Source: Limnohabitans sp. T6-5
GTDB taxonomy: Bacteria; Pseudomonadota; Gammaproteobacteria; Burkholderiales; Burkholderiaceae_C
Assembly (NCBI RefSeq): GCF_003063315.1
Contig: NZ_NERV01000002.1
Location: 620,001 to 684,000, forward strand
DNA length: 64,000 nt
Direction: 5' to 3'
Positions 14,266 through 62,470 of the stretch are shown piece by piece. The translations under genes were made by a program, and so were the position numbers. The stretch's first letter is position 1, and every line of letters begins with the position of its first letter. The notes under the pieces are model-generated. The model was not told the origin of the DNA. It ran no database searches and was given only the letters and a program-made list of their open reading frames with translations.

Positions 14266-14287
14266 TTGTATACGGGTTGTATACGAA
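14266..14287 (-). promoter_or_regulatory. higBA operator/promoter with tandem TTGTATACG
   Basis: TTGTATACGGG and TTGTATACGAA are direct repeats 11 bases apart, one helical turn, immediately upstream of higB. On the gene strand TACAAT overlaps one repeat as a likely -10. The core GTATAC is shared with the prophage-wide operators described separately, but the outer bases differ. Confidence 0.55.
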
Positions 14288-14449
14288 GCACCAAACAGCA
14301 TTCAACCACCACAATTTTCAGGCCTTCACCTGAACTTTCAGGAAACGGCAGAAACCCGTTAAATCCGCCAGCGGCGGGGCGCCGATCCCAGTCGAGTCTC
14401 AATACAAGCATGACACCATAACCCCGTCGCTCGTTGCGGAAGACGCCTC

Positions 14450-14529
14450 AAAGCCCTTGATTCTTGATCCTCTACCCCCGAAAGGGGGAGCACGCCGCAA
14501 CGTGGAGGGTCAAGACTCAAGGGCTTTTT
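14450..14529 (+). terminator. Long hairpin with T run ahead of the first Rha gene
   Basis: AAAGCCCTTGATTCTTGATC... at 14450-14472 pairs with 14505-14527 over about 23 positions with two imperfect pairs, enclosing a CCCCC-GAAA-GGGGG hairpin, and is followed by TTTTT. It can act as a terminator or as an attenuator in the leader of the gene starting at 14571. Confidence 0.7.
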
Positions 14530-14570
14530 GTTTGGCAACTGTGGGCGACTCCAACTCACTGGGGACCACC

Positions 14571-15062
14571 ATGCTTGACCTTTCCGAATTCGTCACTCTC
14601 AACAACGAAACCCTCGTCACTGACAGCCGCCGTGTGGCAAAGCACTTCAAGCGAGCACACAAAAACGTGCTGCGTGCCTTTGATGCCATGGAATGCACCA
14701 CTGAATTCAACCGGCTCAATTTTGAGCCGCGAGATTTCACAGACTCACGCGGCAAACAACAACGCGAAATATGGATGACCAAAGACGGCTTCATCTTCCT
14801 GGTTATGGGTTTCACAGGCTCCGAGGCTGCCAAGATCAAAGAAGCCTACATCACCGCCTTCAACACCATGGCCGACCAGCTCACTCGCATTCAGAACACC
14901 CTTTGGCGTCAGATGCTTGACCTGGAACGCCGAGATGCAAACAGCCAGTCATGGGCCAGCTTTGGCAGCAAGTGCATGCTGGAGCGAAAACGTGACAAGC
15001 CGCTGCTTGAAAACGAGCGCAGTTTGCTGCAAGACCGCATCCAACCCAGTCTTTTAAATTGA
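14571..15062 (+). CDS. Rha-family phage regulatory protein (short form)
   Basis: The 163-residue protein shows the pRha pattern: residues about 18-28 (RRVAKHFKRAH), VLRAFDAMECTTEFNRLNF, then WMTKDGFIFLVMGFTGSEAAKIKEAYITAFNTM. Rha proteins of lambdoid phages and related antirepressors influence lysogenic control. I start at ATG 14571, where the family homology begins. The C-terminal part is short and charged and lacks an ORF6C-like domain. It lies beside a second Rha gene on the same strand. Confidence 0.85.
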   Translation: MLDLSEFVTLNNETLVTDSRRVAKHFKRAHKNVLRAFDAMECTTEFNRLNFEPRDFTDSRGKQQREIWMTKDGFIFLVMGFTGSEAAKIKEAYITAFNTMADQLTRIQNTLWRQMLDLERRDANSQSWASFGSKCMLERKRDKPLLENERSLLQDRIQPSLLN

Positions 15063-15068
15063 CCCAAA

Positions 15069-15098
15069 TTAACCGTATACGAATAGTTTACTGATACA
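15069..15098 (+). promoter_or_regulatory. Promoter with embedded CGTATACG operator ahead of the second antirepressor
   Basis: TTAACC (15069-15074) and GATACA (15093-15098) are an 18-base-spaced promoter candidate. Between them lies CGTATACGAAT, half of the palindrome found at the immunity region and right arm. The position implies repression of the leader RNA and Rha gene by the prophage repressor in the lysogen. Promoter elements are by eye. Confidence 0.5.
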
Positions 15099-15135
15099 CT
15101 TCACAACCCATCACGGGTTGCGCTATGATCCATTC

Positions 15136-15220
15136 GCACCGTAAATAACGGTGCACGGGTTTGGAAGCCCGACGATAGGCGCACAGCAAGCCGCGCCACC
15201 ACCAGTGATGCGGCTTTTTT
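15136..15220 (+). ncRNA. Structured leader with internal terminator, upstream of the C4-like RNA
   Basis: GCACCGT-AAATA-ACGGTGC (15136-15154) is followed by CGGG-TTTGGAAG-CCCG (15156-15171). An intrinsic terminator then follows, AAGCCGC (15188-15194) with GCGGCTT and a T run ending at 15220. A transcript from the promoter at 15069 could end here as an RNA of roughly 100 bases. The loop TTTGGAAG is complementary to TTCCAA in the downstream C4-like element. Confidence 0.5.
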
Positions 15221-15245
15221 GTTTTGCGCAGCACGCTCCGTTTTT

Positions 15246-15315
15246 GGCGGGCCGTGTGGGGAGGGCGAAAGCCCTGCCGGTCCTATCCCGGTCTTCCAAC
15301 CCTGCACGGTCTGCC
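15246..15315 (+). ncRNA. C4 antisense RNA-like element
   Basis: GGCGGGCCGTG (15246-15256) pairs with CACGGTCTGCC (15305-15315) over 11 bp. It encloses AGGGC-GAAA-GCCCT (15262-15275), a CCGG/CCGG hairpin (15277-15291) and the unpaired TCTTCCAACCCTG. This architecture, and its place before an antirepressor gene, match the C4 RNA of phages P1/P7 and its relatives. The segment GTTTGGAAG at 15322-15330, about 40 bases before the Rha start, is nearly complementary to CTTCCAACC, as expected for an antisense target. A covariance-model search would confirm it. Confidence 0.6.
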
Positions 15316-15370
15316 ACCCTCGTTTGGAAGCGCGGGTGACAGGTTTTCAATCTGTTGATAGGAGCCAATC

Positions 15371-16336
15371 ATGGCTGACGCAATCCAAGGCGCATCTGTC
15401 GCCAACATCACCCCTACCCTGACCGTCATCGACGGCAACATCACGACCACCAGCCTGCAAGTCTCAGAGCATTTTGGGAAACGACACGATCTTGTCTTGC
15501 GGGCCATTCGCAACCTGGAATGCAGTGCCGAATTCCGTCTCCGCAATTTTGCGGAGACGGTCGAGACCCGCGAAAACCCCAGTGGCGGTGCGCGCATTCC
15601 ATCACCCGCTTTCAGCATCACCCGTGATGGTTTCGTTTTTCTCGCCATGGGCTTCACCGGAAAAGAAGCTGCACAGTGGAAAGAAGCCTACATCACTGCC
15701 TTCAACCGCATGGAGCGCGAACTGATCGCACGCACCACCCGCCCGGTAGGCCCGACCATCGACTACCGGCGCATCGATGCCAACATGGCCCAAACCCTCA
15801 AAGAAGAAGTGGCCCGCATCGTGGCCACTGGCCGCCAAGGCTACGGCGAGACCTGGGCACGCCTGCACCGCAAGTTTCGGGTCAACAGCTATTTAGAGCT
15901 TCCGGCCAGCCAATACCAAGCAGCCTTGGCCTACCTTTCCGCCAAATCAGGCACAGCCGTCAGCATGCCCCAGCCAAGCGCCATCGACCCCGCAGAACTG
16001 CTTTTATCGGGACAGTCTGATCCCGTGGCGCTCACCGCAGCGCAACAAGCCATGGTCGACCACCGCGCCTGGGAGCTGGCAGGCCATGCCCGCGAACTCA
16101 TTCATGCCCACATCCAGCGGCGCATCGCCTACAAAACCATTCCAGACAACCGCACAGACGAAACAGTGCTCATGCTGGTTGAGAGCACCACCCTGGGCAA
16201 CGCGCTCACGCACTTCTATGGCACCCAACTGGGCAATATGGCCAGCATCCTCAGCTACATGCAGGCCACCGCCCAACAAACCATGGACCGCTACAAGACG
16301 GACATGGGCAGATTGGGAGCAGCTGGCGCGATGTGA
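15371..16336 (+). CDS. Rha-family antirepressor with C-terminal ORF6C-like region
   Basis: The 321-residue protein has an N-terminal pRha domain (about 15-120: VSEHFGKRHDLVLRAIRNLEC, then ITRDGFVFLAMGFTGKEA, then WKEAYITAFNRMEREL). A second domain at about 140-200 (EEVARIVATGRQGYGETWARLHRKFRVNSY) resembles the KilA/ORF6C segment joined to phage antirepressors. It probably antagonises the prophage repressor. A GGAG ribosome-binding site precedes the ATG. Its leader is the C4-like RNA, so expression would be limited both by repressor and by antisense RNA. Confidence 0.85.
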   Translation: MADAIQGASVANITPTLTVIDGNITTTSLQVSEHFGKRHDLVLRAIRNLECSAEFRLRNFAETVETRENPSGGARIPSPAFSITRDGFVFLAMGFTGKEAAQWKEAYITAFNRMERELIARTTRPVGPTIDYRRIDANMAQTLKEEVARIVATGRQGYGETWARLHRKFRVNSYLELPASQYQAALAYLSAKSGTAVSMPQPSAIDPAELLLSGQSDPVALTAAQQAMVDHRAWELAGHARELIHAHIQRRIAYKTIPDNRTDETVLMLVESTTLGNALTHFYGTQLGNMASILSYMQATAQQTMDRYKTDMGRLGAAGAM

Positions 16337-16367
16337 TTGAGGGCACCACCCTTAGGGGTGGCTTCAC

Positions 16368-16742
16368 TCACTTGGCAGTGGTTGTGGGGGCCGGTGCAAT
16401 CGTAATCCGGTCCCCAAACTTGGTGTAGAGGGCAAAAATTCCAGACAGCAAAACCCCAAGCACCACAGCGCCGCCCAAAATCAAGGTTTTCCAGCGTACC
16501 AGGTCATCTACCTTTTTACGAGTTGAGTCGCTGGACTCTTTAAGCGAGTCCACCTTACCTTCCAGCCTTGCCATGGACACCTTGCTGTCGGTGTCCATTT
16601 GGTGCATGGCCGTGCGCAACTCCATCACCGCCTGCACAAAGTGGTATTCAGGATGTCCAAGGCCCGGTGCGATCCGGCTTGGCTCTGTCTCCGCGTTGAC
16701 GCGGGGTGTGCTTTCAGCACTTGATCTGTTGGCTTCAGTCAT
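16368..16742 (-). CDS. Membrane-anchored coiled-coil protein
   Basis: The 124-residue protein starts at 16742 (MTEANRSSAES) and has a coiled coil at about 45-85 (MHQMDTDSKVSMARLEGKVD). One membrane helix follows at about 92-113 (TLILGGAVVLGVLLSGIFAL) and then a short tail. The start overlaps the stop of the upstream gene (ATGA), so the pair forms a small leftward operon. Small phage membrane proteins of this shape include spanin-like and exclusion proteins, but no family is recognised. Confidence 0.65.
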   Translation of the reverse strand: MTEANRSSAESTPRVNAETEPSRIAPGLGHPEYHFVQAVMELRTAMHQMDTDSKVSMARLEGKVDSLKESSDSTRKKVDDLVRWKTLILGGAVVLGVLLSGIFALYTKFGDRITIAPAPTTTAK

Positions 16743-17026
16743 TGCGAAAACTTCACAGACAGCCACTCCCACATATCGTTTGGGCCGCGACCATAGTACG
16801 CACTGATTGGCGTCACCAGTGCAGCGCCGACACGCGATTTCTCACCCTCTGATTGACCCGTGATTTCAAGATGTCCAGACAGTCCAGTACTCGTGCCGTC
16901 AAACCGCACCAACCAACCACGGTCGTTCACCAATTGATGCCTGTCGGCTTCAGGAATAGCGGACACCACCGCCGCGTTCAGTGGGCCAGTGTCTTTGGCA
17001 AGAGAAATAACAACAAAAATTGGCAT
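16739..17026 (-). CDS. Small phage-cargo protein of unknown function
   Basis: The 95-residue soluble protein starts MPIFVVISLAKDTGPLNAAV and contains a conserved-looking core (WLVRFDGTSTGLSGHLEITG) and GAALVTPISAYYGRGPNDMWEWL. The alternation of beta strands and the length recall small phage-encoded accessory proteins. It is translationally coupled to the membrane protein downstream. No family is recognised. Confidence 0.6.
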   Translation of the reverse strand: MPIFVVISLAKDTGPLNAAVVSAIPEADRHQLVNDRGWLVRFDGTSTGLSGHLEITGQSEGEKSRVGAALVTPISAYYGRGPNDMWEWLSVKFSQ

Positions 17027-17127
17027 AGCGTAAGTCTAGCACTTGGCTAATTTCTGGTCTGTGCGGTGCCCCATCTATGATGCGCAAACTTTCCGTTTTC
17101 GGATACCATAAGAACTCGGAGGAAGTC

Positions 17128-17334
17128 ATGAAATCAACATTGGTATTGCTTTTGGCCTGCATTTGCGCAAGCTCTTTTGCAGCAGGAAGCCACAGCCGCA
17201 AAAGCCACATCCGCAAGAACGGCACCTACGTCGCCCCCAGCCGGGCCACCAACCCAGATCACACACGCGCCAACAATTACAGCCACCAGGGTAATGTGAA
17301 CCCCTACAACGGAAAACAGGGCACCAAGCCATGA
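17128..17334 (+). CDS. Small secreted protein with Asn/Tyr-rich repeat-like tail
   Basis: The 68-residue protein has a signal peptide (MKSTLVLLLACICASSFAAG) and a mature part of about 48 residues: basic (SHSRKSHIRKNGTYVAPSR), then NPDHTRANNYSHQGNVNPYN. The end pattern NYSxxGNVNPYxGKxGT is widespread in small secreted bacterial and phage-borne proteins of unknown function. GGAGG lies eight bases before the ATG at 17128. It is coupled by an ATGA overlap to a membrane-protein gene. Confidence 0.7.
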   Translation: MKSTLVLLLACICASSFAAGSHSRKSHIRKNGTYVAPSRATNPDHTRANNYSHQGNVNPYNGKQGTKP

Positions 17335-17699
17335 GCAACGCCAACAAAGCCGTTATTGCAGCATTTTTTCTCTCTGTCATATTTCCGCCGTTTGCCCATG
17401 TCGGTCAGCATCGAGCCACGCATGACGGATTCAAATTTATCGCCAGCCATGACGGCTACGCAGCGGTTCACATCGCACTTTTAATGGCCATCTGGTTTGC
17501 TATCGCCGTCGCCGCCTGCATCATCAACCGAAAGCAGATTTTTACTTTTCTTACAAACTGGCATAAAGACAAAATCATTTTTGAGCAAGCCAAAATCCGC
17601 AAAGAAATCGATGCAAGGTCTGAGGTAGCCCGCATCATGGCTGATGCCATCCTGCGTCATGCTGAAATCACGTCTGCGCAACAGAAAAAATTATTCTGA
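17331..17699 (+). CDS. Two-helix membrane protein, possible lysogenic cargo
   Basis: The 122-residue protein has membrane helices at about residues 5-20 and 45-65 (HIALLMAIWFAIAVAACII) and a basic cytoplasmic helix rich in Lys/Glu. It overlaps the secreted protein gene by four bases and runs against the late operon. That orientation and the leader peptide of its partner suggest genes expressed in the lysogen, for example superinfection exclusion. The role is inferred. Confidence 0.6.
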   Translation: MSNANKAVIAAFFLSVIFPPFAHVGQHRATHDGFKFIASHDGYAAVHIALLMAIWFAIAVAACIINRKQIFTFLTNWHKDKIIFEQAKIRKEIDARSEVARIMADAILRHAEITSAQQKKLF

Positions 17700-17723
17700 T
17701 CTGCTTGCAACCCAGCGCCGCCC

Positions 17724-20700
17724 TCACCGCATCTTCTCCCCCAACTCCTCCCACAACTTGGTCTTCTTGGCCCGTTGGTACTCCACGCCTTCGTCAAACT
17801 CTTCGCGGCTGATGCCGTTTACTTGGTACTGGCGGCGCAGCTTGGCGATGTTGTGGTCAATTTCACTTGACTCGGCCTCGGTCTTTTTCACCAAATTCCG
17901 ACGCAAGCCATCCGTGGGGTAGCTGCCCAGCTTCAGGCCAAATGCCGATGAAATGGCCTGGGCCATGGACTGCGCACGCCCAAAACCATCCTCCTTGCCA
18001 CGGTAGGCGTTTTGCACACCCGTGTACGCATAAGACCCCGGAAGGATCAGCACGTTGGGCATCATCCACTTGTACATATAGTCCAGCACCTTGCCCGACT
18101 GTTCGGCCATGGTGTCAGTCTCCAGCGCAATGGCTTTGCCGGTGAAGGCCGATTTGTTCAGCATCAGCTCGCTCAACATGCCGATGATGCCCCCGATCTG
18201 CAAAGCGGGCGGCAACGGAATTGCTGAATGCCCCTGGCCCACGTCGAACACATCGCCCACGGGCACAAAACGGCGCACATCCAAAAACACTGGCGATCCA
18301 TGCGCATCGTTCCAGGGCATGCGGATCAGCTTGGGCACCCCGCCCCAAATTTTCCCGGCTTTTTCTTCGGGCAGCAGCTTGCGCAGCTCGTCCTCGTCAT
18401 CATCGCCACCCGCCAACATGGCCCCCATGGCATTCAGGGCCCCAGCCACCGCCATGAGCTTGAGCAGCTTGTGCGGCTTCTTGCCCGCCGTCTCCAAAAA
18501 CATGGGGATCGCCCGGTAGCTGAACGCCATGAACGGCCATGCCGAATTCTTCATGGCCACGATCCAAGGCGCATTGACCGAGTAATCCAGGAACGACTTG
18601 CGAGAGACTTTGCCCGCCGCCATGTCGTCCACACCCGATTCTTTGGCCTTGAGCCACGCCGCCAGGCGAAACACTTCATCTTCAGACTGGTACAGGTCGA
18701 TCAGCGTTTTGCCCTCTTGCACCACCGCGCCAACCACTTTGCCCGCCGCCTTGCTCCCTATGCGCCCAGGCGTTGACCCCATGAGCCCACCCGCGGCGTT
18801 GTACACAGCCGGGAACTTGGCATGCATGAACTGCTGCACCGCATTGAACGCCCCCACCTGGCTGCCCAGCTCGTCCTCAATGCCCAGCTCTTTTTGCAGA
18901 TCCTTCAAAATGGGTTCAAGCTGGTCGTTTTGCATCTCCACCGTGGCCCAGCTGCCCAGCTCTCCGCCCGAGTCCTTGTAGCGGTTCACAATCAACTGCG
19001 CCGCCTCGCGGTCGGCAATGCCCATCTTGGCGGCCTGGTTCATGGCCTTGCCCAAAATGCCCTTGTTGTCCCGGTTGCTGGCGGCCATCAAAATCCGCAA
19101 GGCCTTGCGCACATGCGCCTGACTCACGTCGTGCCAGTCGGCCATGACGAAGTTGGACATGATGTTGTTCATGTGCACACCCGGGCTCAGCGCCGTCTTG
19201 CTGGTCTTCCACCAGCCTTGCAGAGTGTTGAAGGCCTCAATAGGCACCTTGCCAAACGACGGGTTGCTCACCTGGCGCACATCGTTCCACACCGGCCCCG
19301 GAATGAAGCGGCCCGCCAGCTTGCCGTACTTGGCCACCGCCGTGCCTGCAATCTTGGTGTCGGGCACCTGCACCCACTCGCCGGGCTTGAACACATGCCC
19401 CCAGCCTTCTTCGGCTGTCACCAACTTGCCGGGCACATCGGCCGCCACCAGCTTGGCCTGGGTCTTGGCCAACCAGGCCAGATACCGCCCCACCTCCACG
19501 TCATGGATCATGCCGTGCAGCGTTTTGGCAATGGCAAAGCGCGCCTCATCCACCTCGCCCATCTTGGTGCGCTCGTCTGCGGTGTAGTCACGCCACATGA
19601 CCACCTTGTCGCCCTGGGTGTCACGCGCCTCAAACGTGCCCGCCTGCGTCCAGTCCTGATACTTGGCCGGCATGGGCTCGGCCGCTGGCCAGTAATTCAC
19701 CTCCAGCACCTTGCCCGGCTGTTTGCCGTCCATGCCTTCAAGCGGCGTCACACCTTCGCCAGATGCTGCCCGGCGCTCCAGGCGAATGAACTTTTCTCCC
19801 TTGAGCGCGGTGTCAGCCTGGCCCTCTTGCGTCTTGCGCTTCCACCAGCCCGGTGCCGCCGCCTGAATCTGGCGCATGCTGGCACCCTCTTCAAAACCCC
19901 GGCCCTTGTACTGGTCACCCAACACAGAAATCGTGCGGCTGCGCTTGGCGTTTTCTTTGTCCGACAGCTCCACCACATGCTTGGCGTAGCTGCGGCGCAG
20001 GTAGGCAAACCGGTGCGCCTTGTACGCCTTTTCGCTCAGCTGGCCCAGCGTCACCGCCTCGCGGCTCAGGTGGTCGATCATCTTTTGCACCTCTTGCAGC
20101 ACCTTGACCGACTCGGCGGGCAAATCCTGCATCAAGCGATCCGCTGCAGATGCATCCGCCTCGTTCATCCAGGCGTAGGCCACCCGGCTCTCTGAGCGGG
20201 TCAAGGTGTTGAGCTTGTCCAGCAAGCGGCCCACCTTGCGCAAATGCTGCATCTTGCGCCCCTGCATGATGGCCCGCTGGTCAATCACCGACTCGGGCAC
20301 GCCATAGTCAGACACCACCCCCGCCTTGACCGCATCGGACGTGAAGCGGTCCAGCTGCTGCGCCGCAAAGTCATAGGCCCACGACGTTAGCTTTTCCAGC
20401 CGGGTCATGCGCGTCAAGGCATGCGCGGCTGCATCAAGCACCGATCCGCCTGCCTTGGCCTTTTCATGAATGATCTCGTCAGCCCGATCCTGTGCCGATA
20501 GGCCTTCTGTCTTGGCCGGGGCACGGGACAGGCGCGTCGGCTCGGATTGACTGTCTGGGTCGTTTGCGGAGACAATGCGCGCATCCCCCCCATCGTTTTG
20601 CACGTTGAGAAGGACGGTCTGAATTGCTTCGGTGGCATTCTTCGTGGAGGGTACTTTCTGGCCCGTCACATTGGCTTCACCTTGCTGGCGCGCCTTGATG

Positions 20701-23700
20701 AAACCCGCCAGATTCTTTTCCGTTAAAATCTTTTTTGTTCCCGGCTTGTTTTGGTATGCCGTATCGGGCAATTGGAGCCCGACCCGCCTCAAAACAGCTG
20801 GGAATACTTTTTTGTCGATGTACCTTGCATTGCCTTGGGCAAACCACTGAGAAAACGGCGGTGGGCTACCGTCCTTGTCATAAGCATTTGTCAATAGGCG
20901 TATTTCGCTGGCTCGGCGCTGACCTTGTGCTCTTGGGTCAAGCGTGATCATCACAACCGCGCCTCCCACCAAATCTGGCGCAATGATCACCAGTGCCCCG
21001 TTAACCGTGGCCGAATCAAACACAGCCGCTGGATTGTCCAACCACTGCGGCACCATCTTCCACTCTGCTGACGTCATGTTCGGGTGGCGGGCGTCCCCGC
21101 CCCGTGGCGCGCCCCTCATGGGTTTGCCTACCGCCGCCTCATCCAGAATGACGGGTCCATTTCCTTCATCCAACAGATCAAGAATGTCAGAGCGGTCCAA
21201 AACAACTGCGGCAACTTGGCCTCGTGACGGACTTTGTGGCACCGAACCGCCAAACAACGCATCAATGCGGGCCTCGTAATTGGCCTTTGTGTCAGAGCGG
21301 CGCGACAGCATCACCCCCTCACTGGCCGGGTTCTTCTTGCGCCACAGCTCGGCCAGCCTCTCAAACACCGGGTAGTCCTTGGCCAGCATGTCTTCGATGT
21401 CAGCAAAGCCCCGCGCGCGGGCCTCGCGCTGCAGCCAGGCCTCTTGCCGCTTGATGTCCTCTTGCAGCGTGGTAGACAGTCGGGTGTCTCCGATGTAGCC
21501 CACCCGGCGCGATGGCAGTTTGCCCGCCACGTAATCGCGGGCACCGTGCACCAGCTCGGCCACAAAAAGGTCGGCGCGCTGCTGCTGGCTCAGTGATCCG
21601 TCCAGCATGTCGGTGATCTTCTGGGCAATCTTGTCGTAGCCGTGGGCCTGCATCCAGTCGCGCACCATCACCACCACCTTGCGCCAGCCCTTGATCTTGG
21701 CCAGCTCAGCGGTCGGAATGTCCACGATCACCTCTTCGGTGGCTTCGGCAGTGGACAGCTTGCCGCGCTTTTGCAGCTCAGTCACTGCCCGGCGCACGCT
21801 GGCGTTCTGGGCATAAACCAGGTGCATCGCCGTCTTGAGCGAAGACCCCAGCACAGCGCGCAAGCCGTAGTGGGCCGCTTCGTGCTCGGCCAGCACATGC
21901 TCGGCGCGCAACTCGTCGGACAGACCAGACGCGAACATGTACAGCTCGCCCTTGTGCATCGCGCCCTCAACGTCATCCCATGCGTCCTGTCGAATGATGT
22001 ACTCGCGCAGCGCTGGCGGGGCCTTGCCGGGGTCGGCCAGCACATGCACCGTGGGCATGTTCGGCATTTTGGCTTTGATGCGTTCGACCAACGTATCCAG
22101 GGCCTCCTTCGACATACCCTGGCCACTGAACTCTGCGCGACTCATCGCCGCGCCCTGCTCCTTTTGATAGCCAGCGAGGTTTTTCTCGGTTAAAATTTTT
22201 CTTGTTCCCGGCTTGTTTGCCGTCGCTTCCCTGGGCAATTGGAGCCCAGCACGCGCGGCAACGGTCGGGAATTCTTTTTGATTCACATAGCGCGCCAAAC
22301 CATCGCGTAACCAGAGGCCAAATGGCGGTGGCCCTGCATCTTTGTCATAGGCGTTTGTCACCTCATGCGCCACCAAAGAAGCGCTCACAGTCGAGTCAGG
22401 TTCTACCGTCACCAGCACCACAGCTCCATTGACCAACTCGGGGGCCACGAACACAAGTGCCCCTTCAACCGTATGGCTGTCAAACACAGCAGCTGGTTTT
22501 TCAATCCAGCCAGGCACCTTTTTCCAAAGATCAGCCGTCATCGCTGGGTGTTTAGATAGACCCTTGATAACCTTGCTTTCACGCAGCACAAGAGGCAGAG
22601 CCTCAAAACCCAGCAGCGACAAGACATCCGAGCTGTCCAACACCTTGACCCCCACACGATTAGCGCCACCCCCTGCAAACAGCGCATCAATGCGTGCTTC
22701 GTAGGCTTGCTGGGTTGCCTGACTTCGGCTGAGCATCGCAGCGCCAATGTCATTTTCAGTCTTGCGGGCACCTTCCAGCTCCTCGCCGCTGTCTTCGATC
22801 TTGGCTGGCTTTCCGCTGTCGGCAGCTTGCTCAATATTTGAGGCTTGAGGTAAACTATTGACGCCGCTTTTGCCCCTGGGAGAAGGGGGGTTGCTCTCAG
22901 CAACTGGCGCACTGGTCCCGGTGCGTTCCCAAAGCGGCTTCCACCCTTCATTTTTCTGTTCATGTCCGATTTGGCCACTGGGAGACGTGGGGTTGCCTCC
23001 GGCAACTAACGTATCAGCCGACTCTCGCTTGCCATCGTCTGAATGCGGCTGTACACTTTTGGTTGGGCTCTGGCTTGACACCATCGCGGTCTTGGAATCG
23101 GCTTCATTTCCAAGATTGGCAGACAAGGCTGATGCGCCGACATCAGCAGCAGGAACGGGTAACCTGCCCCAGAGTTTTTTACCACCGGGTGCCTTGACAA
23201 ACTCGTCGCCGCTTACTTTTTCTTCGTTGGCAGTGGGTCCGGTAGGCCCATTGCCTTGATCGCTGCGGCCACCGCCCGCCGCATTTGCGGGCTCGCCTCC
23301 AGCTTTTTCACCAGGTTTAGTGTCTTCTCCAGCGTTTCCCCGCTGGGTGTCTTTGGCAGTGGCATCGGGTGTCCCTTCAACAGTGGTTTTTGCAGCCTTG
23401 ATCAAATCCTTGCGCTCTGGCGCCTGGGTGTCGCCAAACATCGAGCCCTGAGCGGGATCGCCCGCACTGTCCAGCGCGTCCATGTAAGCCAGGATGAAAT
23501 CCGCCATGCGGCGCGGACGGCGAATGTTGTCAGCCAGGAACTGCAGCAAGTCCCGTGTTTCGGGCGAATACTTGTCGCCGAACATCCCGGCCTGGGCCAG
23601 CGCGTCAGAAATCGAGGTACCCGCATCCTTGAGCCGCGACATTTCCTCCACCGCCGCCATCAGGCCGGGCGTGATGTCCGAATCGAACCGGGCACCCTTG

Positions 23701-26252: not shown

Positions 26253-26286
26253 GCTCTAGCCCCATCATTTCGGTAGGGCTAGAACT

Positions 26287-52573: not shown

Positions 52574-52578
52574 TGGAA

Positions 52579-52603: not shown

Positions 52604-52618
52604 GCCATGCTTGGCACG
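52603..52618. repeat. Copy 6 of the 3'-end motif of the late operon
   Basis: TGCCATGCTTGGCACG directly abuts the stop codon of the terminase large subunit gene. It is inside the perfect inverted repeat GTGCCA-TGCT-TGGCAC. Confidence 0.65.
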
Positions 52619-55434: not shown

Positions 55435-55462
55435 GGCAACACCCCAGCGGCCAGGCCAAAAT

Positions 55463-55765: not shown

Positions 55766-55774
55766 GAAATTTCG

Positions 55775-57290: not shown

Positions 57291-57616
57291 GCAGGGGCCC
57301 TTTGCGGCGCTATCCGGTACCGCAAATAGCGCGGGTTGCGTGCATCGTCAGATGTGGACTCAACCAAGTGCAGCGAACGCAGATAGATGCAGGCCCAGGT
57401 CACGGCCTTGGACGAGCAGCCGGTGCGCTTGACGATTTCGCCGTGGGTGAACCAGTTCTTCGGGAACCCATCGAGAAACTGCAGCACCGTGTCAGCCGTG
57501 CAGCCTGGCCGGTACACGCCAGCAGGCCTGGGGTTGTAGCGCGGCACGGACAAATTCAGGCCCTGGCGCTGGCCAATGTGCACCAATTGGGTGGCGGTCC
57601 AAGTTGCACCGCTCAT
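57287..57616 (-). CDS. Winged-helix-like early phage protein
   Basis: The 109-residue protein has a helix-turn-helix pattern at about 60-85 (FTHGEIVKRTGCSSKAVTWA, then CIYLRSLHLVEST) and a beta wing, ending RYRIAPQRAPA. It lies upstream of the replication genes with a four-base overlap. It may regulate or help load the initiator. No family is recognised. Confidence 0.6.
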   Translation of the reverse strand: MSGATWTATQLVHIGQRQGLNLSVPRYNPRPAGVYRPGCTADTVLQFLDGFPKNWFTHGEIVKRTGCSSKAVTWACIYLRSLHLVESTSDDARNPRYLRYRIAPQRAPA

Positions 57617-57873
57617 CGCGTCCCACTTTCCTCGGATGGACTTGAAGGCCCCGTCCGTGCGATCCTTCGCATCATGTTGAGTTCACCGAAAATCACCCGC
57701 TCCAAAATGCCCCGGGCAAACTCTGCCTTGCTGACGCCCTGGATGACAGCCAAGCCAATCAAGGCCTCGTTGAGTACGTCCGACACCGGCACATCAAGCC
57801 GCGCCGTCAACTTACCGTCAGGGCTCGTCTTGCCCGACCGACTCAAGGCCGTGTCATCGTTGAAATCTGTCAT
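57613..57873 (-). CDS. Small early protein with possible ribbon-helix-helix
   Basis: The 86-residue protein has a beta-strand (GKLTARLDVPVSDV) followed by helices (LIGLAVIQGVSKAEFARGILERV), which fits a ribbon-helix-helix layout. It is the first clear gene after the Cro-like gene in the leftward operon. It overlaps the next gene's start (ATGA). The role is unknown. Confidence 0.55.
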   Translation of the reverse strand: MTDFNDDTALSRSGKTSPDGKLTARLDVPVSDVLNEALIGLAVIQGVSKAEFARGILERVIFGELNMMRRIARTGPSSPSEESGTR

Positions 57874-57888
57874 GGGAGTGACCTAAAA

Positions 57889-58116
57889 ATGAATGAAATG
57901 TTTTGGTGGCAGGCCGCCGCCGTGTTCTGGGGTGCCCTGTGCCTATTCCGACATGGGGCGCGCAGCAAAGCCATCGACATGAACGCCAAACGCTGGTTTG
58001 AAATCGCGCAAGCAGCGTTCATCGTCGTGGCCGTGTTCGCGCTAATCACGGAAGGTCGCGGTTGCAGGTCGTCCGACACGGCGGATCACCCCGCCTGCCT
58101 TGAGTCGTCGTGCTGA
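57889..58116 (+). CDS. Possible two-helix membrane protein antisense to the leftward operon
   Basis: A 75-residue frame with two hydrophobic helices (FWWQAAAVFWGALCLF and FEIAQAAFIVVAVFALI) starts at 57889, with GGAG about 11 bases upstream. It runs opposite the leftward operon and overlaps the Cro-like gene at its 3' end. Its composition is more protein-like than the opposing 57870-58079 frame, but expression is uncertain. Confidence 0.35.
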   Translation: MNEMFWWQAAAVFWGALCLFRHGARSKAIDMNAKRWFEIAQAAFIVVAVFALITEGRGCRSSDTADHPACLESSC

Positions 58117-58308
58117 TTTGTCGTAGCGCTCAAACCAGCCAAAGATGCGCTCGGCAGTGGCCAGCGTGGGCGAGCAACCGCCCGTATGAATGCGGCTGAT
58201 CGTGGCCTGGCTCACGCCAGTTTCACGCGCAATGGTGTTGTGTAGGCCGTCCACCTCAGAAAGGCGGCGGCGCAAAGTAGTGGTGAGGGATTCGGGTTTG
58301 TTCGTCAT
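58042..58308 (-). CDS. Cro-like helix-turn-helix regulator
   Basis: The 88-residue protein has an XRE-type helix-turn-helix (LHNTIARETGVSQATISRIH, about residues 22-41) and a short C-terminus without dimer or protease domains. It is divergent from the repressor gene 58384, across a region with CGTATAC-type operators. This is the expected place of a Cro-like protein that opens the lytic leftward operon. Confidence 0.8.
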   Translation of the reverse strand: MTNKPESLTTTLRRRLSEVDGLHNTIARETGVSQATISRIHTGGCSPTLATAERIFGWFERYDKSARRLKAGGVIRRVGRPATATFRD

Positions 58309-58322
58309 AGCACAGCAATATT

Positions 58323-58369
58323 ATTCGTATCCGGTTATTTTAGCAACTCACATACGGTTAACCGTTTAT
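58323..58369. promoter_or_regulatory. Immunity operators between the divergent regulator genes
   Basis: ATTCGTATCCGGTTAT (58323-58338) and ATACGGTTAACCGTTTAT (58352-58369) are related to the CGTATACG palindromes elsewhere. The second has the half-sites arranged outward around a perfect ACGGTTAACCGT. Two sites between divergent regulator genes match the plan of lambda-type operators. Confidence 0.7.
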
Positions 58370-58383
58370 GAAACGATCCGGTC

Positions 58384-58836
58384 ATGGAAAATTTAAGAGA
58401 AAAGCTTGCCCGTCGGGTGCGCGAACTCATGCACACGTCAATGATCGACACGCAGATCAAGGTGTCCCAAAAAAGCCACACCAGTCAGGCCACGGTGCAG
58501 CGCTTGCTGTCGCGTGAACAATCGTCGACCGTCGATGTTGTCGAAAAAATAGCACACGCCTTCGGCATCAAGAACGCCGCCTACATGCTGCTGGAAGACG
58601 ACGAAATGAAGCTGCTGTCGGTCTGGAACACGCTCTCAGAAACTGACAAATTGAACATCTTGGGATTCATAAATGTGCAAAAAAGCATAAAAGGTGATAC
58701 AAAAGAAGCAGATCAATTCAACATGGTCTCAATTGCCAGCCTGGGAACAGCAAAACAGGGGTTGGCTGAGGGGACCTTCAGCACTGATGAAACGCGACCT
58801 GCCGAATCAAAAAAAAACAGCCGCCGTAAAGCTTGA
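58384..58836 (+). CDS. Prophage repressor (CI-type, helix-turn-helix, no protease domain)
   Basis: The 150-residue protein has an XRE helix-turn-helix (TQIKVSQKSHTSQATVQRLL, about 23-42) and a conserved C-terminal helical part (STVDVVEKIAHAFGIKNAAYM). No S24/LexA-type Ser-Lys self-cleavage region is present, so RecA-driven cleavage is not expected. The ATG has no clear ribosome-binding site and may be leaderless, as for lambda cI. It is the best candidate to bind the dispersed CGTATACG sites. Confidence 0.75.
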   Translation: MENLREKLARRVRELMHTSMIDTQIKVSQKSHTSQATVQRLLSREQSSTVDVVEKIAHAFGIKNAAYMLLEDDEMKLLSVWNTLSETDKLNILGFINVQKSIKGDTKEADQFNMVSIASLGTAKQGLAEGTFSTDETRPAESKKNSRRKA

Positions 58837-59098
58837 TAAAAGCGCCGAAACGGATAAAAACAATAAGCAGATCGCAGACTGGCACCATTGCCGTGCCCAC
58901 GAAGTAGCCGACATCGCCATGGTCAACGTCTCCGTCACAGCAGACGGGCACATCAGGACCACCGCGCTGGCCATAGACCGCAGCCACGCCCCCGCCATCC
59001 TCCAAGAACTTGAAAGCCTGACCCTGCGCCTGCGAACATTCATCAGCAGTGGCGGCCGCCCCCCCTCCCAAGCCCTGCGCCTTGTGTCGTCTAAATGA
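58787..59098 (+). CDS. Small early-arm protein of unknown function
   Basis: The 103-residue protein starts MKRDLPNQKKTAAVKLDK at 58787, 50 bases inside the end of the repressor gene. It has a helical part (HAPAILQELESLTLRLRTFI) near the C-terminus. An earlier start would begin in the repressor gene and is less likely. The role is unknown. Confidence 0.55.
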   Translation: MKRDLPNQKKTAAVKLDKSAETDKNNKQIADWHHCRAHEVADIAMVNVSVTADGHIRTTALAIDRSHAPAILQELESLTLRLRTFISSGGRPPSQALRLVSSK

Positions 59099-59144
59099 CC
59101 TGGGCAAGTGACGTTTCTGGCGTCCTATTTTTTTCCTCCCAAAT

Positions 59145-59164
59145 TATTCGTATACGAATATAAT
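59145..59164 (+). promoter_or_regulatory. Palindromic operator overlapping a promoter -10
   Basis: TATTCGTATACGAATA is a perfect 16-bp palindrome (59145-59160). TATAAT at 59159-59164 forms a consensus -10 just after it, and the next gene starts at 59195 with AAGGA. A repressor bound here would block this promoter. Confidence 0.7.
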
Positions 59165-59194
59165 TGATCGTCAAATCAACAAAAGGAACTGAAC

Positions 59195-59560
59195 ATGGGA
59201 CGTCCGATCATCATCATTGCTGGCCAAGAAGTCACCGGCATACAAGCCGAAGTAGCCTTCATGCAATGGGCCTTGGCCCTCGAGCAAGAGCACAACCAAG
59301 CACTGATCACCGCCTGCAAAGGCAACCGGTGCGGGCTTGCCGTTTGCGAAGTCTTTCAAAAGGCCGTCTTCGGCAAAAACATCGCATTCATGGGCCTTCT
59401 GGGGCAGGCTGGCATCACCGTCATCGCCACAGATTACAGCCCCGGCCTTGGCTATGGCTACCTCACCAAGTTGGGGTTTTTTGGGGGCTACGACACCGAG
59501 GCCGAGGCCCTGAACATGGGCATGCTCGCACAACAACGCATCCAGGAAGCCGCCGCATGA
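59195..59560 (+). CDS. Early-arm protein of unknown function (alpha/beta)
   Basis: The 121-residue protein has alternating helices and strands (VTGIQAEVAFMQWALALEQE, ALITACKGNRCGLAV, GITVIATDYSP). It may be a small alpha/beta domain. It is the first gene of the right arm behind the promoter at 59145. Its stop overlaps the next small gene by four bases. Confidence 0.65.
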   Translation: MGRPIIIIAGQEVTGIQAEVAFMQWALALEQEHNQALITACKGNRCGLAVCEVFQKAVFGKNIAFMGLLGQAGITVIATDYSPGLGYGYLTKLGFFGGYDTEAEALNMGMLAQQRIQEAAA

Positions 59561-59673
59561 ACACCCTGAAATTTTTCACGTTCGTCAATAACCGTATACG
59601 GTTAATTGAAATTACAACCTACACCATCGGCCTGCTCATCGTGGCCATGGATGTCTTGATCTGGAGGCCCTGA
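59557..59673 (+). CDS. 38-residue membrane miniprotein, overlapping an operator
   Basis: This frame begins ATGA at the previous stop and encodes MNTLKFFTFVNNRIRLIEIT with a single membrane helix (YTIGLLIVAMDVLIW). It encodes NNRIRL exactly where the palindrome TAACCGTATACGGTTA lies, so the DNA serves both as codons and as a likely repressor site. Confidence 0.5.
   Translation: MNTLKFFTFVNNRIRLIEITTYTIGLLIVAMDVLIWRP
59589..59604. promoter_or_regulatory. Perfect 16-bp operator palindrome inside a small gene
   Basis: TAACCGTATACGGTTA is a perfect 16-bp palindrome. It lies in coding DNA of the miniprotein gene 59557-59673, so a repressor there could block transcription elongation as in phage L5 stoperators. 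Confidence 0.7.
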
Positions 59674-59792
59674 TGTACACCGACCAAAAAACTCATCTGC
59701 TCAAAACCCTGTGGGCGCTCTACCTGATCGCCTGGTTGACCGACCGCCACGACATCGCCGGTGCCGTCAAGCGCGACATGGAGGCCGCATGA
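59673..59792 (+). CDS. Short membrane-like miniprotein
   Basis: A 39-residue frame begins ATG at 59673, overlapping the previous stop (TGATG). It encodes MYTDQKTHLLKTLWALYLIA and ends GAVKRDMEAA. The amphipathic helix may associate with a membrane. Translation coupling to both neighbours supports it as a real gene. Confidence 0.45.
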   Translation: MYTDQKTHLLKTLWALYLIAWLTDRHDIAGAVKRDMEAA

Positions 59793-60130
59793 GCTGCATG
59801 AACACCCACATGATGAACGCCCACCAGCGGGCCTATGACATGGCCGATGCAAGAGCGGAAGCTGATGAAGAGCGCCAGTCAGAGCGCGCAGACAGCTACC
59901 GCCAAGCATTTGCAGAACTGGTGATGACCCGCAACGTGGACGCTGAGACGGGCATGAAATACATGCCCAAGCTGATCGACGTCGTGGCTGAAGCCGGTTG
60001 CGAAGACGAAAGCGTCTTGCGCGCCATGCTGCAAGGCCTGCTGCACTGCGTTGCCAAGGGGCAAGCTGAGGCCATCACAGCCATGGAAAAAGTCGGCGAC
60101 TTTTTTGTAACCAAACGCCTGGAGGACTGA
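59789..60130 (+). CDS. Early-arm helical protein of unknown function
   Basis: The 113-residue protein starts MSCMNTHMMNAHQRAYDMAD and consists of charged helices (ADEERQSERADSYRQAFAEL, then SVLRAMLQGLLHCVAKGQAE). It is coupled to the miniprotein gene by an ATGA overlap. No family is recognised. Confidence 0.6.
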   Translation: MSCMNTHMMNAHQRAYDMADARAEADEERQSERADSYRQAFAELVMTRNVDAETGMKYMPKLIDVVAEAGCEDESVLRAMLQGLLHCVAKGQAEAITAMEKVGDFFVTKRLED

Positions 60131-60133
60131 CCT

Positions 60134-60304
60134 ATGACCAAGATTGACTACGGCTGCGCCATCGAACGCCCAGCGCGTGGCGTGCACGTCACGCCCACCA
60201 TGAAGCGTCGTTTACGCATGACCTGCTACGTGCTTGCATATGCCGTCACCGTGCTGATGGTGTGCTCGCTTGTCATCGCAATCTTGAATGGATCGAAGCC
60301 ATGA
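60134..60304 (+). CDS. Small membrane protein of the early arm
   Basis: The 56-residue protein starts MTKIDYGCAIERPARG and has one membrane helix near the end (VLAYAVTVLMVCSLVIAIL). It overlaps the next gene by four bases. Its short form and basic N-terminus recall phage membrane-associated early proteins. Confidence 0.5.
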   Translation: MTKIDYGCAIERPARGVHVTPTMKRRLRMTCYVLAYAVTVLMVCSLVIAILNGSKP

Positions 60305-61434
60305 GCACACAAATTGAAGCCCTGAAGCTTGCGCTGGAGGCGTTGACGATTGCGCGTGGACAACTTAAATCATGGGGGCTTGGCGATGAAGCCATCACAG
60401 CCATCAAAGAAGCCTTGGCACAGCCAGAGCAGGAGCCTGTGGCGGAGTTGTTAAAACAAAGCCGCGCAAATTTTGAGCGCAACTTTGGAAAAGGCGGACA
60501 GGGTTGGGCTGACTGGATTTATGGTGATATTGCCGAACTACTCAGCGAACACACATTCCCGCAGCCAGCACAGGATGGTGCCCTCACAAGTGAGGGTACC
60601 AAAGCACCCGTGCAGCAGGAGTCCGTGTCATTTCTTGCAAATGGAACACGCTTCAAGATGTCGTTCTTTGATTGTGCGGCACCAGAAGGCGACGAACACG
60701 GGGAAACCGATGTGGGTACTTATGTGACCTGCTTTGAGGCTTTTGCAAAAGAGCTGGATGGCCGGTGGGTCGCCCTTGTTGCAGCCGAAGATGATTGCCA
60801 CTTGAAACTCACATCCCCGCAGCCAACACAGCAAGAGCCGGTGGCAGACCGTGCGTTTCTTGGCCGAGTATTGGCTGCAATGGAAGGCGTGGTCGATGTG
60901 GCAGATCGAAAGACAGTCGAGTTTGACGCGCTTCGCTCGTGCATCGTTGATTTGACTTTGATGTTGCACTCCCCGCAGCCAGCACCCGCGCCGGGTTACT
61001 GCCCGCACTGCAAGCAGTACAGCATTGCAGAACCATTGCCAAGCCTGCCATTTGGCGTTGGGGGTGGGCTCGTCGCAATCAAGACGCTGCTTGGCCGCGA
61101 CCCGTGCGCCCATGCACAAACGGCGATTGAAATGATTGATGCCATCCTTGCGGGTCTGCCAGAGCAGCCCACGCCGCTGACACCCGTGGATGGCGACTTA
61201 CTCCCGCCTGTCGGGGCAAAGGTGCTGATTCACCTCGCCAGTCTTGATAAATGGGTCACTCACACTGTTGTCGGCTACTACGTGTGGGGCGCATTTGACT
61301 CAGACCAACTGCATCGGGTTTTCGTCCGAGTGCGTGACTCAGACGGCTTTCTCAACGCCCGCAGGCTGGGCGATGTGCGGCTCTACGACGAAGCCGCCAA
61401 CGGCATCAAGGACCACCCAAACCACCAAAACTGA
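60301..61434 (+). CDS. Multi-linker early protein with zinc ribbon
   Basis: The 377-residue protein starts MSTQIEALKLALEALTIARG, a helical domain, then has Pro/Gln linkers (SPQPTQQEPVA and SPQPAPAPG), a zinc ribbon (YCPHCKQYS) at about residues 235-245, and a C-terminal beta part with LPPVGAKVLIHLASLDKWVT. Modular proteins with such linkers are common in betaproteobacterial phages, but their role is unknown. It is coupled by overlap to the upstream gene. Confidence 0.65.
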   Translation: MSTQIEALKLALEALTIARGQLKSWGLGDEAITAIKEALAQPEQEPVAELLKQSRANFERNFGKGGQGWADWIYGDIAELLSEHTFPQPAQDGALTSEGTKAPVQQESVSFLANGTRFKMSFFDCAAPEGDEHGETDVGTYVTCFEAFAKELDGRWVALVAAEDDCHLKLTSPQPTQQEPVADRAFLGRVLAAMEGVVDVADRKTVEFDALRSCIVDLTLMLHSPQPAPAPGYCPHCKQYSIAEPLPSLPFGVGGGLVAIKTLLGRDPCAHAQTAIEMIDAILAGLPEQPTPLTPVDGDLLPPVGAKVLIHLASLDKWVTHTVVGYYVWGAFDSDQLHRVFVRVRDSDGFLNARRLGDVRLYDEAANGIKDHPNHQN

Positions 61435-61476
61435 TGTATCAGTTGCACAACAACTGAAAAAAAATTTCCTTCAATT

Positions 61477-61517
61477 ATTCGTATATGGTTTACGCATTAT
61501 TCATATACGGTTATCAT
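61477..61517 (+). promoter_or_regulatory. Promoter with two operators two helical turns apart
   Basis: ATTCGTATATGGTT (61477-61490) and ATTCATATACGGTTAT (61499-61514) are spaced 22 bases. A promoter candidate is TTTACG (61489-61494), 17 bases, TATCAT (61512-61517), so the second operator lies between -35 and -10. Binding would shut off the gene at 61556. Confidence 0.65.
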
Positions 61518-61555
61518 TGAGGCGTAGTCAGGAAACATCAAAGGAGTCAGGAACC

Positions 61556-61750
61556 ATGGAAACAGTCATTCATGTGCAAGTTAAAAGCGTGTACGGCAAC
61601 ACGCTCATTTACCCCATCAACCAAGCCGCCCAGCTGATCGCCAACATCGCGGGAACAAAGACACTCAGCCGCGCCAACCTGGCAACGGCCCAACAACTGG
61701 GCTTCCAAATTCAGGAAGTCCCGGCTATTCAACTGGCGGGGGTTCTGTGA
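61556..61750 (+). CDS. Small beta-type early protein
   Basis: The 64-residue protein starts METVIHVQVKSVYGNTLIYP with AAGGAG upstream and has a helix (AAQLIANIAGTKTLSRANLA). It is the first gene after the operator-controlled promoter at 61477. A similar short protein is common in phages. Its function is unknown. Confidence 0.6.
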   Translation: METVIHVQVKSVYGNTLIYPINQAAQLIANIAGTKTLSRANLATAQQLGFQIQEVPAIQLAGVL

Positions 61751-62001
61751 TGTGGGGCGCACGCAGCAACAAGGGCGCAGCCCTCACCCGCAAAGCCAAC
61801 AAGGCCCTCAAGGGCCGGGTTGAATCAGCAACGGTCAAGTGCTCTGGCTACGGCGCAAGCGGCGAGGTGTACGCCAATGAGATTGAACCGCTCATGTCGG
61901 CTCGTCAAATACTGGTCGAGGCGGGCATCCCATGCAGCCCCATCCAGACATTCAAAATGCTTGAGCCATGCTTTTACATTGGCGAGGGGGTGGAGGTATG
62001 A
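61750..62001 (+). CDS. Small basic early protein
   Basis: The 83-residue protein starts MWGARSNKGAALTRKANKAL, with a basic N-terminus, and then a more acidic part (YANEIEPLMSARQILVEAGI). The ATG at 61750 overlaps the previous stop. A GTG at 61747 is an alternative. No family is recognised. Confidence 0.6.
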   Translation: MWGARSNKGAALTRKANKALKGRVESATVKCSGYGASGEVYANEIEPLMSARQILVEAGIPCSPIQTFKMLEPCFYIGEGVEV

Positions 62002-62228
62002 GCACACAACACACACCGGGGCCATGGGTGGCCAAACAGAGCGGTGAAGTTACCGACAGTGATGGACATGAAATAGCGCACGTCTTCATGTTCAAGAATC
62101 TTGCACTTGTTGCCGAAGCGCCTGAGCTGTTGAAGGCACTGCAAAACCTGCTGACCTTCCCTCTGGGAACATTCCAGGTACAAGCCGCCAAAGCGGTCAT
62201 CGCCAAAGTAACGGGAGAGCAAACATGA
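61998..62228 (+). CDS. Widespread small phage protein (TPGPW type)
   Basis: The 76-residue protein has the common phage N-terminus MSTQHTPGPWVAKQ and a helical end containing APELLKALQNLLTF. Proteins of this type are widespread in phages of Proteobacteria, yet have no assigned role. It overlaps its neighbours by ATGA. Confidence 0.7.
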   Translation: MSTQHTPGPWVAKQSGEVTDSDGHEIAHVFMFKNLALVAEAPELLKALQNLLTFPLGTFQVQAAKAVIAKVTGEQT

Positions 62229-62458
62229 CCCTCATTCAACGTCAAACCCGGATCGTGCGCGCACTGGAGAACGTGTACCGCCGCCGCTGGCAAAACCCTG
62301 GGCAACGGTCCAGGGCTGTGCGCCTGCTGGCGGAATTCAACGCCAAACGCATGACCTTCGCGGGCTACGCGGCCGACGAGGCCCGCGCCAGCTTCGTGCA
62401 GTGCGTGGACATGGCCGTGCTCAACATCAACTCAGGGCCTTTGTTCGCCCACAAATAA
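62225..62458 (+). CDS. Helical early protein, upstream of recT-like gene
   Basis: The 77-residue protein is helical (RIVRALENVYRRRWQNPGQR, then RAVRLLAEFNAKRMTFAGY). It lies just before the operator at 62456. Coupled by ATGA to the upstream gene. The function is unknown. Confidence 0.6.
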   Translation: MTLIQRQTRIVRALENVYRRRWQNPGQRSRAVRLLAEFNAKRMTFAGYAADEARASFVQCVDMAVLNINSGPLFAHK

Positions 62459-62470
62459 CCGTATACGAAT
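62456..62470. promoter_or_regulatory. Operator before the RecT-like gene
   Basis: TAACCGTATACGAAT lies between the small gene and the RecT-like gene, 20 bases before its start. It combines the two known half-site types (TAACCGTAT and ATTCGTAT reversed). Confidence 0.6.

What the first reader, a model, noticed from the sequence alone, without database searches (positions are those of the whole stretch)
14266..62470. A prophage-wide operator set with core CGTATACG, including the promoter of a distant antirepressor
Related palindromic sites occur at 58323-58369 (immunity region), 59145-59160, 59589-59604, 61477-61514 (two copies), 62456-62470 and, about 43 kb away, inside a promoter at 15069-15098. 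Two are perfect 16-bp palindromes. They sit on promoters or inside genes. This resembles the dispersed stoperators of phage L5, but the motif and the link to an antirepressor are different. The higBA sites at 14266-14287 share the GTATAC core.
Basis: partly seen in the sequence, partly recalled or inferred. Interest (0 to 1): 0.72.

Follow-up and report, generated by a model that had tools for sequence, protein, structure and literature searches.

The report
Prophage-wide repressor operators locking an antirepressor
A dormant virus in a bacterial chromosome carries about nine copies of one DNA switch site, most of which have counterparts in a related phage with altered letters, and one copy sits at the RNA-controlled operon for the protein expected to wake the virus, a wiring already known from phage P1.

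Summary
The sites are real. Seven strong copies of a 16-bp palindrome (half-sites TAACCG or TATTCG) lie in one 57.4-kb prophage. A whole-assembly scan puts 9 of 16 loose matches, including all three perfect ones, in that prophage, 1.4% of the assembly. Two weak sites complete a three-operator immunity region. The distance from first operator to repressor start codon is 62 bp in the window and in relatives L145 and G077, although half-site letters differ. Sibling phage L145 has counterparts of eight of the nine sites. Its half-sites are mainly TATCCG, and its immunity proteins are 49% and 52% identical. The sites are best read as operators of the 58384 repressor and/or its partner 58042. The distal copy at 15070-15085 lies on a promoter-like site feeding an isrK-like RNA, a C4 antisense RNA and a Rha-family antirepressor. 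Phage P1 has the same wiring (dispersed C1 operators, C1-repressed c4-ant operon), so that link is not new in kind. The L5 stoperator comparison is weak; the higBA sites do not fit the motif. No binding was shown. The antirepressor link was seen in this prophage only: none of 29 other C4 loci showed it, and 15 sibling records gave no C4 match.

The parts
13542..13562 (+). attL, 21 bp, identical to C2:690880-690900 at the end of tRNA-His; bounds a 57.36-kb prophage that runs past the window
   Evidence: only these 2 places in the assembly at up to 2 mismatches
14571..15062 (+). first Rha-family gene, ends just before the distal operator
   Evidence: Pfam Phage_pRha 89.3 bits
15059..15087 (+). 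promoter-like TTGACC-17-AATAGT, overlapped by the operator
   Evidence: 9 of 12; 2 such sites in 14500-15500 against 0.4 in shuffles
15070..15085 (.). distal operator TAACCGTATACGAATA
15100..15129 (+). promoter-like TTCACA-18-TATGAT, not covered by the operator; expected start about 15136
   Evidence: 10 of 12
15136..15220 (+). isrK-like RNA; overlaps a weak c4-a1b1 match at 15123-15175
   Evidence: 38.9 bits, below the cut-off of 50, full length; c4-a1b1 22.3 bits, below 46.7
15240..15321 (+). C4 antisense RNA
   Evidence: 70.3 bits, cut-off 45
15371..16336 (+). antirepressor-like gene: Rha domain, stretch resembling ORF6C
   Evidence: Phage_pRha 89.5 bits; ORF6C 21.4 against 22; several PHROG anti-repressor families
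58042..58308 (-). Cro-like HTH protein, 88 aa
   Evidence: Pfam HTH matches all below cut-off; PHROG transcriptional repressor family E 5.9e-6; 44 of 85 identical to the L145 counterpart
58322..58337 (.). operator O1 TATTCGTATCCGGTTA
58345..58360 (.). operator O2, weak alone (score 9.8)
   Evidence: position matches O2 of G077 and L145
58359..58374 (.). operator O3, weak alone (score under 5), shares TA with O2
   Evidence: position matches O3 of G077 and L145
58384..58836 (+). presumed repressor, 150 aa, HTH, no S24 cleavage domain found
   Evidence: HTH_3 23.4 bits, cut-off 23; 74 of 150 identical to the L145 counterpart
59145..59160 (.). operator at the presumed early promoter; TATAAT at 59159-59164 seen by eye
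   Evidence: the promoter scan listed no promoter here
59589..59604 (.). operator inside a small ORF (59557-59673)
61476..61491 (.). first of a tandem operator pair, 22 bp apart
61498..61513 (.). second of the pair; overlaps promoter-like TTTACG-17-TATCAT 61489-61517
   Evidence: 1 promoter found in 58000-62700 against 2.0 in shuffles
62456..62471 (.). operator 35 bp before the recT start
62491..63330 (+). RecT-like gene
   Evidence: PHROG 561 E 3e-61; Pfam RecT 23.3 bits against 24

Best explanation
The seven strong sites, with O2 and O3, are operators of this prophage's own immunity regulators: the 150-aa repressor (58384) and its divergent Cro-like partner (58042). In the lysogen the repressor would hold down the immunity promoters, the early lytic promoter at 59145, the promoter under the pair at 61476/61498 and, 43 kb away, the promoter at 15059-15087 that feeds the isrK-like RNA, C4 RNA and antirepressor. 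A second promoter (15100-15129), not covered by an operator, would keep making isrK and C4 RNA, and C4 would block translation of the antirepressor. Loss of repression would release the antirepressor, which would inactivate more repressor: a mutual-inhibition switch locked at transcription and at RNA level. Shown: the sites, their concentration in the prophage, the C4 RNA match, the gene families, the conserved layout and the shifted half-sites in L145. Inferred: which protein binds, repression at each site, the use of the two promoters, C4 action, and antirepressor action on 58384.
For: Best matches concentrated in the prophage. Immunity region of G077: 39 of 66 bases agree without gaps; 20,000 mononucleotide shuffles reach at most 33 and no other place in that contig exceeds 32; its own motif has 4 places in its genome, 3 in this 16.7-kb contig, against 1 for the control. 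L145: at least 8 sites scoring 15 or more in 16 kb against 1 in 1.51 Mb of control DNA; its motif has 10 places in the 57-kb record against 2 for the control; counterparts of O1-O3 (steps 22 and 14; window and G077 23 and 14), pair spacing 22 and recT site. Half-sites moved (TATCCG 9 of 20 in L145, 0 of 14 in the window) with both immunity proteins diverged. C4, Rha and promoter-like sites at the distal operator.
Against: No binding data. 58384 and 58042 cannot be told apart as binder. The reversed control pattern is as frequent at 2 mismatches. An automated search for the three-operator geometry flagged only G077 and L145, not the window or L136-L144. The early-promoter and small-ORF correspondences with L145 rest on order; DNA does not align between window 58539 and 61471. 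G077's repressor-like gene was not a match of 58384. L173, whose RecT segment is 83% identical, has 0 places for TAACCG-N4-CGGTTA. No C4 in 15 sibling records, though no control genome rang either. Promoters near the immunity region are not enriched.
Confidence: 0.75

Rival explanations
1. The dispersed sites belong mainly to the Cro-like protein 58042, which turns down early genes later in lytic growth, while 58384 uses only the immunity region.
For: Both proteins are HTH proteins with similar predicted recognition stretches (SQAT, by eye), and both diverged together with the sites.
Against: An antirepressor unit switched off by a lytic protein makes little sense for lysogeny; in lambda both proteins share operators (PMC4488713, passages).
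Confidence: 0.12
2. Sites 59589 and 62456 are roadblocks inside operons, as in L5, instead of promoter operators.
For: One is inside a small ORF, the other between genes; no promoter was predicted at either; the recT site is conserved in L145.
Against: Palindromic and without a consistent direction, unlike L5 sites; the promoter scan also missed 59145, so its silence is weak.
Confidence: 0.3
3. The higBA repeats at 14266-14287 are part of the same operator set.
For: They share GTATACG, and higBA lies inside the prophage beside attL.
Against: Best score 6.6 against 26.8 or more. Of three relatives of this HigA elsewhere, two have GTATA direct repeats before higB by eye, though none has GTATAC, so HigA's own site or a -10 element fits at least as well.
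Confidence: 0.08
4. The distal site at 15070 is a chance or relic match and does not control the antirepressor unit.
For: The strongest promoter-like site (15100-15129) lies outside the operator; none of 29 other C4 loci shows such a shared operator.
Against: It is one of three perfect matches to the 16-mer in 4.17 Mb, all in this prophage; it overlaps a promoter-like site; P1 has the same link.
Confidence: 0.15

Closest known systems
Phage P1: dispersed C1 operators and C1-repressed c4-icd-ant (immI) operon
   Same: One repressor with sites scattered over the genome (22 in P1), one of its targets being the operon for C4 RNA and the antirepressor (PMC8546580 and PMC8198154, passages)
   Different: P1 sites are 17 bp and asymmetric; here they are palindromic, about nine, in an integrated prophage with a 150-aa HTH repressor, a Rha-domain antirepressor and an isrK-like RNA
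Gifsy-1 isrK-anrP unit
   Same: isrK RNA upstream of an antirepressor-like gene, read through from one promoter (PMC4825925, abstract and passages)
   Different: The words C4 RNA and operator do not occur in that paper's main text; the isrK match here is below Rfam's cut-off
Mycobacteriophage L5 operators and stoperators
   Same: Repressor sites dispersed over the genome, some between genes (PMC9283540, passages)
   Different: L5 sites are 13-bp, asymmetric, bound by a monomer and oriented with transcription
Lambda and N15 type CI/Cro immunity region
   Same: Divergent regulator genes with three operators between them (PMC4488713, passages)
   Different: Here the presumed repressor is transcribed towards the early genes, and operators continue far outside
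LexA-controlled antirepressors of Gifsy prophages
   Same: Antirepressor gene outside the immunity region, repressor not cleaved (PMC3121763, abstract and passages)
   Different: There LexA controls the antirepressor; here the phage operator is at its operon; LexA sites were not searched

Membership tests
P1-type C4/antirepressor unit | C4 RNA at the family cut-off upstream of an antirepressor-like gene | tested here: met
   70.3 bits, cut-off 45; Rha gene 50 bp downstream
P1-type C4/antirepressor unit | C4 segments complementary to targets around the antirepressor start | tested here: inconclusive
   Predicted duplexes -23.1 kcal/mol upstream and -17.9 downstream, no shuffled control; c4-a1b1 below cut-off
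P1-type C4/antirepressor unit | Operon repressed by the same repressor as the rest of the phage | tested here: inconclusive
   Shared operator sequence present; repression not testable
P1-type C4/antirepressor unit | Antirepressor binds the repressor | not testable with these tools
   needs protein work
isrK | Match to the Rfam family at its cut-off | tested here: not met
   38.9 bits against 50, though full length and E 6.5e-7; called isrK-like only
L5-type stoperators | Asymmetric site oriented with transcription | tested here: not met
   palindromic sites; half-sites of the five mixed sites point 2 one way, 3 the other
L5-type stoperators | Repressor halts elongation at intergenic sites | not testable with these tools
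   needs transcription assays
Lambda-type CI/Cro region | Divergent HTH genes with three operators between | tested here: met
   one strong and two weak sites whose places match G077 and L145
Lambda-type CI/Cro region | Repressor with S24 cleavage domain | tested here: not met
   no such Pfam match at E 0.05 in 58384

The most novel reading that the evidence does not exclude
A lineage of temperate phages from this bacterial family and related metagenomes keeps a fixed operator map while operator letters and immunity proteins change together, and plugs different distal genes into it. In this prophage the distal gene is its own antirepressor behind an isrK/C4 RNA lock; in L145 and L143 it is an unrelated divergent gene pair. 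Induction would be a self-reinforcing release that does not need repressor cleavage.
Probability: 0.42. Interest if true: 0.62.

Novelty: new variant of a known kind. Interest (0 to 1): 0.5.

Why it matters
It would be an example outside P1 of a phage whose repressor also holds down a C4-controlled antirepressor. Sites at matching positions with diverged letters in a sibling give a natural series for testing how a repressor and its whole operator set change specificity together, a step that must pass through intermediates in which several promoters are only half held.

Tried and rejected
Relatives of 58384: none by peptide patterns in viral contigs or genome contigs, none by tblastn in the phage records. 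Besides the window's own genome, 2 weak matches in 399 family genomes (G101, G288) and 1 in 369 class genomes (G670). The L145 counterpart was missed and came only through recT. G101 has an S24-type repressor gene (by eye) with TATCCGGTAACGGATA upstream, on a 4.4-kb contig: suggestive only. G288 and G670 showed nothing I could use. 58042: one match besides the window's own in 399 genomes, G077, 29% identical.

L016, the only viral contig listed with the exact TAACCGTATACGGTTA, looks unrelated by its genes and has one strong copy.

General rule that C4 promoters carry the phage operator: tested on 29 of the 82 other C4 matches, chosen by eye for long contigs. No recurrent palindrome like the window's was found. 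Those calls used even-centred 16-mers only; the iid p-values are unreliable (36 of 229 control windows under 1e-6), and one other locus (G022C7) reached 9.1e-9 with a sequence I take for coding DNA. One search failed its own positive control (the window) and is uninformative. Five loci carry 15-21-bp palindromes upstream of C4, picked by eye; four have no second copy beyond chance in the fetched DNA, one (G051) has a partial second copy about 0.9 kb away.

AlphaFold on 58384 alone failed (mean pLDDT 40.4) and no fold search was run. The nearest solved sequence, 'Repressor' 5d50/5d4z, is only E 0.04-0.06; that it is the SPC32H Rep protein is recalled.

L138-L140 have a related immunity region whose operators I could not assign. 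L141 and L143 fit the layout by eye, but their whole-record counts (5 against 3 control, 9 against 6) are not clean. A geometry script flagged G077 and L145 but not the window.

A search for phiC31 inverted-repeat operators, recalled as another palindromic dispersed set, listed nothing usable. The overlapping 2-mismatch pair at 17090/17096 was left out of the operator set; the gene pair that carries a distal operator in L145 and L143 has no match in the window.
Full report
OBSERVATION. Four CGTATACG sites lie in the window where shuffles give 0.10. The larger motif is a 16-bp palindrome of two half-sites, TAACCG or TATTCG, around four central bases. In the 4.17-Mb assembly the 16-mer has 16 places at up to two mismatches, 9 of them in this prophage, with all three perfect matches and three of four with one mismatch. 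The reversed control also has 16 places, so the signal is where the best matches lie, not how many loose ones there are. A matrix built from the seven strong sites scores them 26.8-33.3; the next best in 124 kb scores 9.8 and is the second site of the immunity region. The seven trained the matrix, so this shows separation, not independent proof. The five other CGTATACG places in the genome score below 7.

THE ELEMENT. A 21-bp repeat at window 13542 and at C2:690880, at the end of a tRNA-His gene, bounds a 57.36-kb prophage that runs past the right end of the window. An integrase-like ORF, named by eye, lies just inside the right end. higBA lies inside it, next to attL.

THE DISTAL SITE. The operator at 15070-15085 is followed by an isrK-like RNA (15136-15220; 38.9 bits, below its cut-off of 50, full length), a C4 antisense RNA (15240-15321; 70.3 bits, cut-off 45) and a gene with a Rha domain and a stretch resembling ORF6C just below its cut-off (15371-16336). 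C4 is predicted to pair with targets on both sides, without a shuffled control. Two promoter-like sites were found in 14500-15500 against 0.4 in shuffles. One (15059-15087) is overlapped by the operator. The other (15100-15129) is not, and its expected start coincides with the isrK 5' end.

THE IMMUNITY REGION. Gene 58384 (150 aa, HTH_3 just above its cut-off, no S24 domain found) and gene 58042 (88 aa, HTH matches below Pfam cut-offs) diverge from a region with one strong operator, O1. Genome G077 has a region with another motif (TAGCCA-N4-TGGCTA), found through its 29%-identical Cro-like gene. Its repressor-like gene was recognised by place and HTH; it was not a match of 58384. Laid side by side without gaps, 39 of 66 bases agree; mononucleotide shuffles reach at most 33, and no other place in that contig exceeds 32. 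In G077 the operators step by 23 and 14 bp, and the first lies 62 bp before the start codon I chose for the repressor-like gene. The same steps on the window give O2 and O3, each weak alone, and 58322 to 58384 is also 62 bp. The G077 motif at up to two mismatches has 4 places in its genome, 3 of them in this 16.7-kb contig, against 1 for the control; a local scan adds single-mismatch sites at 6737 and 8773.

THE SIBLING MAP. A scan for recT relatives kept the best 80 of 374 confirmed loci. With 9 loci of another gene, 89 loci were scanned with the window's matrix; 6 had a hit of 11 or more. L145 (RecT 83% identical) stands out: at least 8 sites of 15 or more in 16 kb, against one in 1.51 Mb of control DNA. 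It carries counterparts of both immunity proteins, 74 of 150 and 44 of 85 identical, and its half-sites are TATCCG in 9 of 20 against 0 of 14 in the window. The shifted motif has 10 places in the 57-kb record, up to 3 mismatches, against 2 for the control. Counterparts: O1-O3 with steps of 22 and 14 bp and 62 bp to the start codon; two sites at the early promoter where the window has one; one site by a small membrane-like ORF (just before it in L145, inside it in the window); a pair 22 bp apart; and the site before recT. At the pair and at recT the DNA aligns directly. At the early promoter and small ORF it does not, and the correspondence is by order. L145 also has sites at 14148 of the locus and at 9472 and 22016 of the record; 22016 is inside a structural gene and may be chance. 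The 9472 site and a site in sibling L143 both lie at a divergent promoter of what looks like one gene pair, judged by eye, which the window lacks. So two relatives (G077, L145) give the immunity layout clearly; L141 and L143 fit it by eye.

MECHANISM. The simplest account is one repressor holding these promoters, including that of its own antirepressor unit, with C4 as the second lock. The inferred steps are marked in the best explanation. The two sites without a predicted promoter (59589, 62456) could be weak promoters or roadblocks; the data do not decide.

HOW GENERAL IS THE ANTIREPRESSOR LINK? C4 was found in 48 of 399 family genomes, the window's own included, 83 matches in all; none of 14 control genomes rang. 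I examined 29 of the other 82 with up to 60 kb around them. None had an upstream palindrome recurring through its neighbourhood as the window's does, within the limits told under Tried and rejected. No C4 was found in 15 sibling virus records, which may be fragments, and no control rang in that search. The link is thus supported in this prophage only.

COMPARISON. P1 has 22 dispersed, asymmetric C1 operators (PMC8546580, passages), and its c4-icd-ant operon is repressed by C1 and by C4 RNA (PMC8198154, passages). This prophage would work like that with other parts: palindromic sites, a different repressor, a Rha-domain antirepressor and an isrK-like RNA as in Gifsy-1 (PMC4825925, abstract and passages). 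L5 stoperators differ in symmetry and polarity. In Gifsy phages the antirepressor answers to LexA (PMC3121763, abstract and passages). I did not find this arrangement described for a phage like this one in the listings, which cover only the open-licence library.

THE higBA SITES. They share GTATAC but score 6.6 at best. Of three relatives of HigA elsewhere, two show GTATA direct repeats before higB by eye and none has GTATAC. They most likely belong to HigA or to the promoter itself.

Noticed in passing
window 8078-8097: A third copy of most of the attachment sequence (20 bp exact) lies 5.5 kb left of attL, which suggests a second or older integrated element at 8.1-13.5 kb.
   Followed up: no
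window 17724-26252: A single minus-strand ORF of 2842 aa at the end of the structural region.
   Followed up: no
window 17090-17111: Two overlapping 2-mismatch matches to the operator inside or near a small ORF; a similar sequence (TATCCGTTTTCGGTTT) is a distal site in sibling L143.
   Followed up: partly
window 14571-15062 and 15371-16336: Two Rha-family genes in tandem, the operator and RNA unit lying between them.
   Followed up: partly
C4 matches: One genome (G038) has ten C4 matches on separate contigs, which suggests several related prophages or fragments in one strain.
   Followed up: no
G028, G283, G128, G177 and G051 C4 loci: Palindromes of 15-21 bp lie upstream of C4 without a clear second copy nearby, so other regulators may hold those units.
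   Followed up: partly
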